A model generated the notes under the pieces. It was given only the letters and a program-made list of their open reading frames with translations. It was not told the origin of the DNA and searched no databases. Positions 33,100 through 36,454 of a stretch of DNA of 64,000 nucleotides are shown piece by piece. The position numbers and the translations under genes were made by a program. Within the stretch, counting starts at the first letter, position 1. The number at the start of each line of letters is the position of its first letter. This stretch comes from Desulfopila aestuarii DSM 18488. Its GTDB lineage: Bacteria > Desulfobacterota > Desulfobulbia > Desulfobulbales > Desulfocapsaceae. The stretch covers positions 1 through 64,000 of the forward strand of contig CAMBBS010000005.1 of the NCBI GenBank assembly GCA_945863875.1. Reading direction: 5' to 3'.

Positions 33100-34443
33100 A
33101 TGCGCTATTTGCCACATACTGACCTAGAAATCGGTGCAATGCTCGACGTCGTCGGCAGAAAAAGCCTGGATGAGCTGTTCTGCTCGGTACCCGAAGGGTG
33201 CCGCTGCGAAGGACCAATGGATTTACCCGAACCGCTCAACGAGTGGTCGCTGACCGATCATGTCGCGCAGCTTGCCGAAAAAATGACGGTAAACCACCAC
33301 GACAAGGTGCTGATCGGCGCCGGCAGCTATCACCACAATATTCCGGTAACGATCGCCTCTCTGATGGGCCGGTCGGAGTTTCTCACCGCCTATACCCCCT
33401 ATCAGCCGGAAATAGCCCAGGGAACCCTGCAGGGCATCTACGAATATCAGACCCTGACCGCCAGGCTGCTCGGCATGGATGTGGCCAACGCCTCGATTTA
33501 CGATGGCGCCTCCGCCCTGGCCGAGGCCCTGTTGATGGGGCTGAGGATTGGTAAGAAAAAGCCCAAAGTGGCGATCTCCAGAGCCATCCACCCGCATTAC
33601 CGGGCGGTGGTCAAGACCTATCTTGATCCATCGCAGTATGAGCTGGTCGAGCTGCCGGTGGATGAAGACGGCCGCACCGACCTGAGCGGTCTTGGTGACA
33701 TCGATGGGCTGGCGGCGGTAGCCATCCAGTCGCCGAATTTTTTTGGTGTGATCGAAGACCTGTCTGCCCTGGGTCAGACTATCCATGGCCATGGCGCCCT
33801 GTTTATCAGCTGTTTCACCGAACCCCTCGCCTACGGCCTGGTGAAAAATCCCGGCGAATGCGGTGCGGATATCGTCTGCGGTGAGGGCCAGAGTTTTGGC
33901 CTGCCGCGATCTTTTGGCGGACCGGGGCTCGGCATGTTTGCCTGCCGCGACCAGTTTGTCAGGAATATGCCCGGCAGGCTGGTCGGAGAAACCGTTGATC
34001 TGGACGGCAAGCGTGGTTTCGTGCTGACGCTGTCCACCCGCGAGCAACATATCAGGCGGGAAAAAGCCACGTCGAATATCTGTTCCAATCAGGGCATCTG
34101 TACCCTCACCGCGGCGATGTATATGTCTTCTCTTGGCGGTTCAGGGCTGCGCCAGCTGGCCAGGCTCAATTATGACAAGAGTGAATATTTCAAGGCCCAG
34201 CTGATCAAAAATGGCGCGAAGGTCGTCTTTGATTCCCCGACCTTCAATGAGTTTGTCGTAGAATTCAAGGCAGATTTTCGGCCGATCTATACAAGGTTAT
34301 TAGAAAAGAGAATTGTTGCCGGTCTGGAACTTGGTCGATATTATCCGGAACTTGCCGGAAAATATCTGTTTTGCGTGACGGAAACGGTTGCCAGGGACGT
34401 AATCGATGCAGTGGCAGGTGAGGTGTCAACTCCTCCGTCCTGA
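33100..34443 (+). CDS. gcvPA: Glycine dehydrogenase (decarboxylating) subunit 1
   Basis: The 447-residue protein is the N-terminal-type subunit of the two-subunit P protein: MRYLPHTD at the start, GAGSYHHNIP, YTPYQPEIAQGTLQ, SNICSNQG near 325, and a fold-type-I layout. With subunit 2 it decarboxylates glycine using PLP and loads GcvH. The AAAGGATAAAACC leader couples it to gcvH. Its last five codons and the stop lie inside the left end of the IscB-like element: the stop TGA (34441-34443) falls in the loop of the first hairpin of that element, so the native C-terminus has probably been changed by the insertion. Confidence 0.92.
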   Translation: MRYLPHTDLEIGAMLDVVGRKSLDELFCSVPEGCRCEGPMDLPEPLNEWSLTDHVAQLAEKMTVNHHDKVLIGAGSYHHNIPVTIASLMGRSEFLTAYTPYQPEIAQGTLQGIYEYQTLTARLLGMDVANASIYDGASALAEALLMGLRIGKKKPKVAISRAIHPHYRAVVKTYLDPSQYELVELPVDEDGRTDLSGLGDIDGLAAVAIQSPNFFGVIEDLSALGQTIHGHGALFISCFTEPLAYGLVKNPGECGADIVCGEGQSFGLPRSFGGPGLGMFACRDQFVRNMPGRLVGETVDLDGKRGFVLTLSTREQHIRREKATSNICSNQGICTLTAAMYMSSLGGSGLRQLARLNYDKSEYFKAQLIKNGAKVVFDSPTFNEFVVEFKADFRPIYTRLLEKRIVAGLELGRYYPELAGKYLFCVTETVARDVIDAVAGEVSTPPS

Positions 34444-34519
34444 AGGGCGGAGCTTGTGCAAGCAAGGTCCTCTGTTGACCAACCACGGCCAGGGCGCAAG
34501 ACGACAAACATTGCCCTGG
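34425..34519 (+). ncRNA. Structured left end of an IscB-type element (omega-RNA-like remnant)
   Basis: Three nested structures are visible. GTCAAC (34425-34430) pairs with GTTGAC (34474-34479). Inside is CTCCGTCC-TGAA-GGGCGGAG (34433-34452) and a small CTTG/CAAG hairpin (34453-34462). A second stem follows, CCAGGGC (34489-34495) with GCCCTGG (34513-34519). IscB elements carry their guide-RNA scaffold at this place, immediately 5' of the nuclease frame, with the guide drawn from the flanking DNA. Whether it is still transcribed as a guide RNA is unknown. Confidence 0.5.
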
Positions 34520-34967
34520 TGGCAGAGTGTCAGCAGGGGGGATTGGCCGGATACGAAGCCAGAGAATATCTTTGTAAACGGTTCATCGCAATTCTTGCCC
34601 GGGCCAAAGCACCGTTACAGGATGGTGGTGCAAGCAACTCGATTCGCTATGCCACCGGCGGCAGGTTGCAGGCATTCGGCCTGCAGGTTTCCTTCTCGTC
34701 CGGAGGAAGAACCACGTATAGCCGGACGAACCAAGGCTACGGAAAATCCCATTGGCTTGATGCCGTTTGTGTCGGTGCAACAGGCAGGCGTGTCCATATT
34801 CCGCCGGGACGTACGTTGGCAGGGTGTCTGTGCGAAAGCCCGGCAGTTTCAACATCAAGACAGAAGCGGGTACAATGCAGGGGATTGCATGGAGACATTG
34901 CTCTCTTTTGCAGCGTACCGATGGTTACAACTACTACTTAGGAGACAGCGTATCCTCCTCCACCTGA
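34513..34967 (+). pseudogene. Truncated, frameshifted IscB-type RNA-guided nuclease
   Basis: Two reading frames together match the C-terminal part of IscB. Frame one (34513 to about 34805) carries QQGGLAGYEAREYL, then ILARAKAPLQD, SNSIRYATGGRLQAFGL, SGGRTTYSRTNQGYGKSHW and LDAVCVG, which includes the RuvC-III His/Asp motif. Frame two (about 34809-34967) carries GTYVGRVSVRKPGSFNIK and CSLLQRTDGYNYY. The N-terminal RuvC-I, bridge helix and RuvC-II glutamate region are absent. The segment where the HNH nuclease should lie, between REYL and ILARAKAP, is deleted. An HNH-less IsrB origin is possible, but the ILARAKAPLQD join favours IscB with a deletion. Dead as a nuclease. Confidence 0.75.
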
Positions 34968-34996
34968 AGGAAGAGGTATCCACGCTGTAATTTTAG

Positions 34997-36454
34997 ATGA
35001 AAAAGACACCGGGCAGAAGTGGATTGATTTTTGACGAACCCTTGCTCTGGGAAAAAGGCAAGAAGGGCAGGCACGGCATGAGTATTCCGGCAAGCGATGT
35101 TCCGGCAGCTGCCTTGCCGGAGGCACTGCAGGGGGCGGGGCCGGATTTTCCCGACCTGAGTGAAATCGATGTGGTGCGCCATTATACCCGCCTGTCCCAA
35201 TGGAATTACGGCGTGGACAGCGGCATGTATCCCCTGGGCTCCTGCACCATGAAATATAATCCGAAGATCAACGAGAAGGTGGCCGCTACCCCGGAACTGG
35301 CGGCGGCCCACCCGATGCTCGGCGATGAATATGTCCAGGGTAACCTGCAGATCATGTTCGAGCTGCAGGAGTATCTGGCCGCCATCACCGGGCTTCCCGG
35401 CGTTTCATTGCAGCCGGCGGCCGGAGCCCATGGCGAGCTCACCGGGATGCTGGTTTTTGCCGCCTGTCACCGGGCACGGCATTCAAAGAGAACAAAGATC
35501 CTTATCCCTGACACGGCCCACGGCACCAATCCGGCCAGCGCCGCTCTGTGTGGCTATAAGCCGGTACCGATCAAGTCCGGGGCGAACGGCATCCTGCGCG
35601 TGGAATCGGTGGCCGAGGTGATGGATGAAGAGACCGCCGGGATCATGATCACCAACCCCAATACCCTCGGCTTGTTTGAAACCAATATTCGTCAGATCGC
35701 TGAAATTGTCCATGCCAAGGGTGGTCTGGTCTACGGTGACGGGGCGAATATGAATGCGGTCATGGGGGTCATCAGCGCCGCCAGGTGTGGCGTCGATGTC
35801 ATGCATCTGAACCTGCACAAGACCTTCTCGACACCCCATGGCGGCGGCGGTCCGGGTGCGGGTCCCCTCTGCGTCACCGGAGAGCTGGAGAAATATCTGC
35901 CGATACCACGGGCGGTCAAAGACGGCGACACCTATCGCCTCGATTTTGATTGCCCCGACTCCGTCGGCCGGGTACACGCCTTTCACGGCAACTTTGGCGT
36001 GCTGCTCCGGGCCTACAGCTATATCCGGACCATGGGCGCGGAAAATCTGAAAAAGGCCAGCCAGCTGGCGGTGCTCAACGCCGCCTATATTAAAGAAAAG
36101 TTAAAGGGTACCCTGCAGCTGGCCTACAACCGGCCGTGTATGCACGAATGTGTCTTTTCCGACGGGCTGCAGCAGGAAGATAAAATAACCACGCTGGATA
36201 TGGCCAAGCGGCTTATCGATCACGGTTATCATCCGCCCACCATTTATTTCCCCCTGGTGGTGCACGGAGCGATCATGATCGAGCCCACCGAGACCGAATG
36301 TAAGGAGGATATCGATCAGTTTATCGAGACGGTGAAGCTGGTGGTGCAAGAGGCGAAAGACAATCCGGAACTGCTGCGGCAGGCGCCGGTGATGGCCAAG
36401 ATGCGGCGACTGGATGAAACCCGGGCTGCCCGCAATCCCTGTCTCTGCGGCTAA
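34997..36454 (+). CDS. gcvPB: Glycine dehydrogenase (decarboxylating) subunit 2
   Basis: The 485-residue C-terminal-type P subunit has the PLP-binding Lys in LHKTFSTPHGGGGPG (about 275), and SGMYPLGSCTMKYNP and PAAGAHGE motifs. It forms the glycine-decarboxylating complex with GcvPA. It is separated from gcvPA by 553 bases of IscB-element remnant. I see no good ribosome site before its ATG, only GAAGAGG about 20 bases away, so the insertion may have removed the native one. Its stop overlaps the lipB start (TAATG). Confidence 0.94.
   Translation: MKKTPGRSGLIFDEPLLWEKGKKGRHGMSIPASDVPAAALPEALQGAGPDFPDLSEIDVVRHYTRLSQWNYGVDSGMYPLGSCTMKYNPKINEKVAATPELAAAHPMLGDEYVQGNLQIMFELQEYLAAITGLPGVSLQPAAGAHGELTGMLVFAACHRARHSKRTKILIPDTAHGTNPASAALCGYKPVPIKSGANGILRVESVAEVMDEETAGIMITNPNTLGLFETNIRQIAEIVHAKGGLVYGDGANMNAVMGVISAARCGVDVMHLNLHKTFSTPHGGGGPGAGPLCVTGELEKYLPIPRAVKDGDTYRLDFDCPDSVGRVHAFHGNFGVLLRAYSYIRTMGAENLKKASQLAVLNAAYIKEKLKGTLQLAYNRPCMHECVFSDGLQQEDKITTLDMAKRLIDHGYHPPTIYFPLVVHGAIMIEPTETECKEDIDQFIETVKLVVQEAKDNPELLRQAPVMAKMRRLDETRAARNPCLCG

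What the first reader, a model, noticed from the sequence alone, without database searches (positions are those of the whole stretch)
34425..34967. IscB-type RNA-guided nuclease fossil inside the glycine-cleavage operon
Between gcvPA and gcvPB lies a 550-base remnant whose two frames match the C-terminal half of IscB. They retain the RuvC-III HWLDAVCVG motif and GYEAREYL, but RuvC-I, the bridge helix and the entire HNH domain are missing, and a frameshift separates the parts. Mobile OMEGA elements inserted in a core operon and then domesticated or decayed are rarely noted. It records a past guide-dependent nuclease in this lineage.
Basis: partly seen in the sequence, partly recalled or inferred. 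Interest (0 to 1): 0.85.

Follow-up and report, generated by a model that had tools for sequence, protein, structure and literature searches.

The report
IscB transposon remnant at gcvPB start
A shrunken copy of a mobile element that once encoded the Cas9-like nuclease IscB sits exactly in front of the start codon of a core metabolic gene, and its sister copies in the same genome keep their reading frame open while their protein sequence drifts freely, which hints that the host needs ribosomes to pass through them.

Summary
Window 34425-34996 is an internally deleted IscB/HEARO (OMEGA) element: five pieces of a 1,599-bp element joined by four deletions. It keeps both ends, a RuvC-I stub, GYEAREYL, RuvC-III and the C-terminal tail; bridge helix, RuvC-II and HNH are gone.

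It is not a lone fossil. The genome has 25 right ends of this element. One copy has a complete iscB (435 aa) and HEARO RNA. The 14 other same-genus genomes searched have no DNA match.

The element separates gcvPA from the gcvPB start codon; in 22 of 25 relatives these genes overlap as ATGA. All 25 right ends abut NTGA, and at 18 an ORF of at least 100 aa starts there.

Unexpectedly, iscB variants across copies are flat by codon position and nonsynonymous:synonymous is neutral, yet in-frame stop-creating variants are depleted (3 versus 13.9 expected, P=0.0003); the other two frames show no depletion. Seven of eight shared deletions are in frame, against 1 of 11 private ones.

Best reading: selection keeps decaying copies translatable so that expression reaches the gene behind. 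That cause is inferred, and the window copy alone gives no evidence for it.

The parts
33100..34443 (+). gcvPA; its last codons and TGA stop (34441-34443) now come from the left end of the element
   Evidence: NF001696 575 bits, profile 2-442/447; ORF list; left boundary from sister copies
34425..34495 (+). element left end, element positions 1-71: 8-bp hairpin at about 34433-34452 with the gcvPA stop in its loop, and the first third of what is the HEARO RNA in full copies
   Evidence: alignment to the full copy; hairpin read from the sequence; no Rfam hit in the window itself
34496..34536 (+). element 447-487: RuvC-I stub without the Asp
34537..34573 (+). element 800-836: GYEAREYL segment; a 312-nt in-frame deletion precedes it (RuvC-I rest, bridge helix, RuvC-II)
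34574..34804 (+). element 1011-1241: RuvC-III (HWLDAVCVG); a 174-nt in-frame deletion before it removes the HNH domain
34805..34996 (+). element 1408-1599: C-terminal (TAM-interacting) part and right end ending TTTTAG; a 166-nt deletion before it shifts the frame
34456..34941 (+). 161-codon ORF (GTG) through the remnant, starting shortly after the gcvPA stop
34454..34990 (+). 178-codon ORF (TTG) open across the remnant, ending 6 nt before the gcvPB ATG; candidate relay frame (inference)
34997..36454 (+). gcvPB; its ATGA is the NTGA that flanks the element's right end
   Evidence: NF003346 692 bits; start conserved in relatives

Best explanation
SHOWN: 34425-34996 is an internally deleted copy of an IscB/HEARO (OMEGA) element of the IS200/IS605 kind, which in this genome lies directly 5' of NTGA. 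Here it lies at what is the gcvPA-stop/gcvPB-start ATGA overlap in relatives, leaving both proteins essentially whole but placing the upstream region that carries GAGGTG in relatives about 570 nt away from the gcvPB ATG. SHOWN for the family: deletions shared between copies are nearly all in frame and in-frame stops are avoided, while the amino-acid sequence evolves without detectable constraint. INFERRED: once a copy sits between a gene's ribosome-binding region and its start codon, the host depends on expression crossing the element. Copies that block translation (stops, frame breaks) are lost with their host lineages, and copies that shrink but stay open survive. Ribosomes that translate the remnant frame would stop 6 to about 56 nt before the host ATG and re-initiate, or simply prevent Rho-type polarity.
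For: Family identity and anatomy. Copies, one full iscB ORF (447 bits, profile 1-314) and HEARO RNA at 154.7 bits. Site: right flank NTGA in 25 of 25 right ends (23 ATGA, 1 TTGA, 1 GTGA), ORF of at least 100 aa from that NTG in 18 of 25, against 471 of 2,489 RTGA sites in other genomes (binomial P about 1e-8) and 17 of 124 non-interior ATGA sites in the window being starts of genes called by a simple script. Named genes behind: argJ, nicotinate phosphoribosyltransferase, leucyl aminopeptidase, Mrp/ApbC, ferredoxin-thioredoxin reductase, gcvPB. Empty sites: gcvPA/gcvPB ATGA overlap in 22 of 25 relatives and the L080 locus in 3 relatives aligned. Frame without protein: codon positions 123/148/139 (P=0.31), private nonsyn:syn 175:64 against 164.8:68.4 expected, stop-creating variants 3 against 13.9 in frame (P=0.0003) but 19 against 13.5 and 18 against 16.2 in the other frames. 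One of those 3 (L066) is no stop because its codon has several changes; the others are in L082 (iscB start deleted) and L073 (right end lost). Shared deletions in frame 7 of 8 against 1 of 11 private (Fisher P=0.0012). Simulation of private events in 17 copies: total open run 12,378 nt against a maximum of 12,057 in 2,000 null sets. Frame-restoring pairs in L080, L082 and L088.
Against: No single copy is significant in the simulation; the window copy has P=0.595. L065 and L075 have no long ORF starting at their right end and yet are open. One shared deletion (116 nt) and 10 of 11 private in-ORF deletions are out of frame; L083 is not compensated (347 nt). The right end is no better conserved than the rest (4.7% against 4.2% divergence), so no ribosome-binding site is visibly kept. 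The purine stretch GGAAGAGG in the right end lies about 20 nt from the ATG, too far for a normal Shine-Dalgarno. Shine-Dalgarno-like 4-mers are only mildly enriched in the left flanks (10 of 25 against 23%, P=0.04). The gcvPA flank is about 6 nt shorter than in relatives, unexplained. No expression data.
Confidence: 0.5

Rival explanations
1. Ordinary neutral decay: non-autonomous deletion derivatives of an IscB element, spread in trans and then decaying. The open frames are leftovers of a once-coding sequence and the in-frame bias is chance plus shared ancestry.
For: Divergence is uniform along the element; codon positions are flat; no single copy is significant; 10 of 21 deletion junctions lie in imperfect direct repeats at P<0.02, as slippage would give.
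Against: Stop depletion is specific to the coding frame; the simulated private-event null is exceeded by the total of 17 copies; in-frame bias of shared deletions P=0.0012.
Confidence: 0.33
2. The deleted copies still encode working miniature proteins (IsrB-like, HNH-less) that are used by the element or the host.
For: The 174-nt deletion removes just the HNH domain; ORFs of 238-399 aa from the iscB ATG remain open in many copies; IsrB without HNH is a natural nickase (PMC9581776, passages).
Against: No amino-acid constraint on private or shared variants; many copies also lack the bridge helix or catalytic motifs.
Confidence: 0.07
3. Element-level selection: translation in cis of any peptide helps a copy's RNA or its mobilisation, so open copies multiply more.
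For: Shared variants too contain no stop (0 against 4.6 expected) and shared deletions are in frame.
Against: Frame-restoring private pairs in L080 and L082 suggest selection after insertion; no known need for translation in cis by IS200/IS605 elements (recalled).
Confidence: 0.1

Closest known systems
IscB / OMEGA systems with HEARO RNA (Rfam RF02033, NCBIfam NF040563)
   Same: Full copy L062 has a complete IscB profile match, HEARO RNA upstream and an NTGA flank
   Different: The window copy has lost most of the RNA, PLMP, bridge helix, RuvC-II and HNH
IsrB (e.g. DtIsrB, TAM NTGA; PMC9581776 passages)
   Same: HNH-less derivatives; NTGA beside the element
   Different: HNH loss here is a 174-nt deletion in copies about 91-96% identical to an HNH-bearing copy; no sign of protein function
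Non-autonomous internally deleted IS derivatives (MITE/PATE-like; recalled)
   Same: Both ends kept, interior deleted, many copies
   Different: Reading frame stays open and copies sit at host start codons
HEARO elements integrating before ATGA or GTGA (recalled from Weinberg et al. 2009; paper not held)
   Same: Right flank ATGA; the readable ends of relatives from other phyla are mostly RTGA too (31 of 34 classified)
   Different: The start-codon position and the frame-without-protein signature did not turn up in the listings of searches, which cover open-licence papers only

Membership tests
IscB (OMEGA nuclease) - window copy | Profile match to guided_IscB | tested here: inconclusive
   E=7.3e-13 over 63 of 314 positions, below cut-off: homologous remnant
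IscB (OMEGA nuclease) - window copy | RuvC-I/II/III, bridge helix and HNH | tested here: not met
   Only RuvC-III and stubs remain
IscB (OMEGA nuclease) - window copy | HEARO/omega RNA upstream | tested here: not met
   No Rfam hit in the window; only element positions 1-71 remain
IscB (OMEGA nuclease) - sister copy L062 | Full profile match and HEARO RNA | tested here: met
   447 bits over 1-314 and 154.7 bits; the best PDB sequence relatives are IscB structures
IscB (OMEGA nuclease) - sister copy L062 | RNA-guided cleavage | not testable with these tools
   needs biochemistry
IsrB | Naturally HNH-less lineage with kept RuvC and bridge helix | tested here: not met
   HNH-less copies are about 91-96% identical in DNA to the HNH-bearing copy, and many lack the bridge helix
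IS200/IS605-type non-autonomous element | Constant ends, no target duplication, fixed flank motif | tested here: met
   ends and motif; absence of duplication seen at the L080 locus
IS200/IS605-type non-autonomous element | Mobilised by a Y1 TnpA in trans | tested here: inconclusive
   25 Y1_Tnp matches in the genome; which one, if any, acts is unknown

The most novel reading that the evidence does not exclude
A Cas9-ancestor element whose target motif NTGA doubles as a start codon settles at the join between ribosome-binding region and start codon of host genes. It is then kept as a translatable, sequence-indifferent relay: selection preserves an open reading frame but not the protein, so that operons such as gcvPA-gcvPB keep running through it while it shrinks by in-frame deletions.
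Probability: 0.3. Interest if true: 0.75.

Novelty: new variant of a known kind. Interest (0 to 1): 0.58.

Why it matters
If the relay reading is right, it separates selection for being translated from selection for a protein, in a natural set of 25 or more related insertions. It would explain how elements that insert at start codons are tolerated in core operons. It also gives testable cases (gcvPB, argJ, mrp, nicotinate phosphoribosyltransferase) for re-initiation after long inserts. Even if wrong, the genome is a clear record of how IscB elements lose HNH and bridge helix stepwise.

Tried and rejected
Rfam on the window: no match at gathering threshold. Pfam on the remnant: only a weak unrelated match (Megourin, below cut-off). 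PDB sequence search with the remnant: none. A functional mini-IscB: rejected as main reading because codon positions are flat. A conserved ribosome-binding site in the right end: not seen. A self-splicing origin: Rfam on L062, L068, L084 and L085 gave only HEARO (2 hits). Replication in another genome: Scytonema NIES-4073 (one family searched) has divergent or identical copies rather than an evident set of close deletion derivatives, so I did not use it. Start-codon position in 34 of the 65 relatives, those whose right boundary I could read by eye: 9 of 12 ATGA but only 3 of 19 GTGA ends start an ORF of at least 100 aa, so the rule does not hold for GTGA elements. Four-gamete conflict among deletions (A with C, F with C; read) points to recombination or repeat deletion; not resolved, although copies with the HNH deletion share a nearby substitution.

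Rows dropped before counts: L095 (no element match) and L096 (21-nt match) from copy counts; L062, L088, right-end fragments and contig-cut copies from the 17-copy simulation; L097 (own), L123 and L126 from the relatives' junction count, where 2 further loci had no close gcvPA. Three of the 25 junctions are not ATGA: in L103 gcvPA appears to end TAA directly before ATG, and the automatic call missed it. Of 65 loci, 57 were printed and 34 classified. 34 own-genome loci hold the element, the window's included, but some contig-end halves may be one copy, so I count right ends.

Full report
What is there. The window is contig C5 of a 4.69-Mb, 93-contig genome. Between gcvPA (33100-34443) and gcvPB (34997-36454), both strong family matches, lies 34425-34996. 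Aligned to the full-length element of the same genome (L062:1001-2599, 1,599 bp, iscB ORF at element 263-1570, 435 aa) it consists of element positions 1-71, 447-487, 800-836, 1011-1241 and 1408-1599. The deletions are 375, 312, 174 and 166 nt. Similarity to IscB is beyond chance: E=7.3e-13 to the NCBIfam model, 81% identity over 78 aa and 87% over 53 aa to the full copy. Domain borders are read from motifs I recall, with the NCBIfam and PDB matches as support.

It is one of many. The left and right ends are each found at 25 places (two further right-end pieces are cut short and one left-end match is a 20-nt chance-level hit). 34 loci, the window's included, hold parts of the element; some at contig ends may be halves of one copy. 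One copy has the whole iscB profile (447 bits), and 23 places match HEARO RNA, 20 of them over the cut-off. Blastn with the full element finds nothing in the 14 other same-genus genomes searched, so the spread is specific to this lineage as far as sampled. In genome contigs the relatives found are 34-69% identical over their best segment, many of them from cyanobacteria.

Where it sits. All 25 right ends end in a TTTTAG-like hexamer followed by NTGA: 23 ATGA, one TTGA, one GTGA. At 18 of 25 the NTG opens an ORF of at least 100 aa. Ten of these 18 were scanned against families; eight gave a family, several of them housekeeping genes, and L068 and L074 gave none. gcvPB was scanned; the remaining seven were not scanned. 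In the other genomes 19% of RTGA sites open such an ORF, giving P about 1e-8. In the window, 17 of 124 ATGA sites outside gene interiors are starts of genes called by a simple script, giving P about 5e-11; with a cautious 25% it is about 1e-6. The NTGA motif equals the TAM reported for DtIsrB (PMC9581776, passages seen). HEARO integration before ATGA or GTGA is recalled from Weinberg et al. 2009, which is not held.

The gcv site. In 25 relatives with adjacent gcvPA and gcvPB the two genes lie directly together, and 22 show the ATGA stop/start overlap, mostly with GAGGTG just before it. The window insertion lies between that region and the ATG: gcvPA now ends in the loop of the left-end hairpin, and gcvPB keeps its own ATG. 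The left flank is about 6 nt shorter than in relatives, which I cannot explain. gcvPB has no second close copy in the genome (the only other match is gcvPA). A second empty site, at the ferredoxin-thioredoxin reductase gene behind copy L080, aligns through the junction in three relatives.

The unexpected part. Across the copies the 410 distinct iscB variants fall evenly on codon positions (123, 148, 139; P=0.31), and nonsynonymous:synonymous counts equal neutral expectation for private and for shared variants. By that measure the protein is unconstrained, although the full copy L062 itself has few private nonsynonymous changes (2, with 5 synonymous). Yet stop-creating variants in the iscB frame number 3 where 13.9 are expected (P=0.0003), against 19/13.5 and 18/16.2 in the two other frames. 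One of the three (L066) is not a stop in its actual codon, one is in L082 whose iscB start is deleted, and one is in L073, which has lost the right end. Deletions found in two or more copies are in frame in 7 of 8 cases; private in-ORF deletions in 1 of 11 (P=0.0012). Three copies (L080, L082, L088) carry pairs of out-of-frame changes that sum to a multiple of three; L083 does not. All 17 copies tested have a stop-free frame that reaches element position 1541 or beyond. When only private events are randomised, the summed open length (12,378 nt) exceeds all 2,000 null sets (maximum 12,057), though no copy is significant alone and the window copy has P=0.595.

How it may work. I infer that a copy between a ribosome-binding region and its start codon survives only if expression can cross it. 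A remnant frame that stays open lets ribosomes move to within 6 to about 56 nt of the host ATG, or protects the transcript from polarity. In the window, two frames do so: GTG 34456-34941 and TTG 34454-34990. Against this: two copies without a long ORF at their right end are open as well (L065, L075), and the right end shows no extra conservation. Plain neutral decay stays the main rival. Deletion junctions lie in imperfect direct repeats in 10 of 21 cases at P<0.02, so slippage is a likely cause of many of the deletions themselves.

Verdict. The finding is real and correctly named as IscB-derived. As a fossil in a core operon it is a new instance of a known kind. The family-wide signature of frame kept and protein not kept, at start codons, is the part worth following.

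Noticed in passing
L076 element 734-830 and 837-1011: This copy shows that the common 270-nt loss in other copies is two in-frame steps (96 nt and the 174-nt HNH deletion).
   Followed up: yes
L084, L066, L083, L068 and others: Deletions occur in all four combinations for two pairs (A with C, F with C), suggesting recombination between copies or repeated deletion at the same places.
   Followed up: partly
L137-L194, right boundaries: In other phyla, IscB elements ending at ATGA mostly sit at starts of ORFs (9 of 12 classified), those ending at GTGA do not (3 of 19).
   Followed up: partly
window 34411-34425: The gcvPA flank is about 6 nt shorter than in relatives; small loss at insertion or lineage difference.
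   Followed up: no
L086, L089, L093: Copies reduced to little more than the right end (76-142 nt of element) directly before NTGA; L086 and L093 precede ORFs of 257 and 123 aa.
   Followed up: partly
own genome: 25 matches to the Y1 transposase family, several broken; none was tied to this element.
   Followed up: no
G000:C25:56683-56874: A weak IscB-profile match (194-258) with no DNA match to this element; possibly a different family or chance.
   Followed up: no
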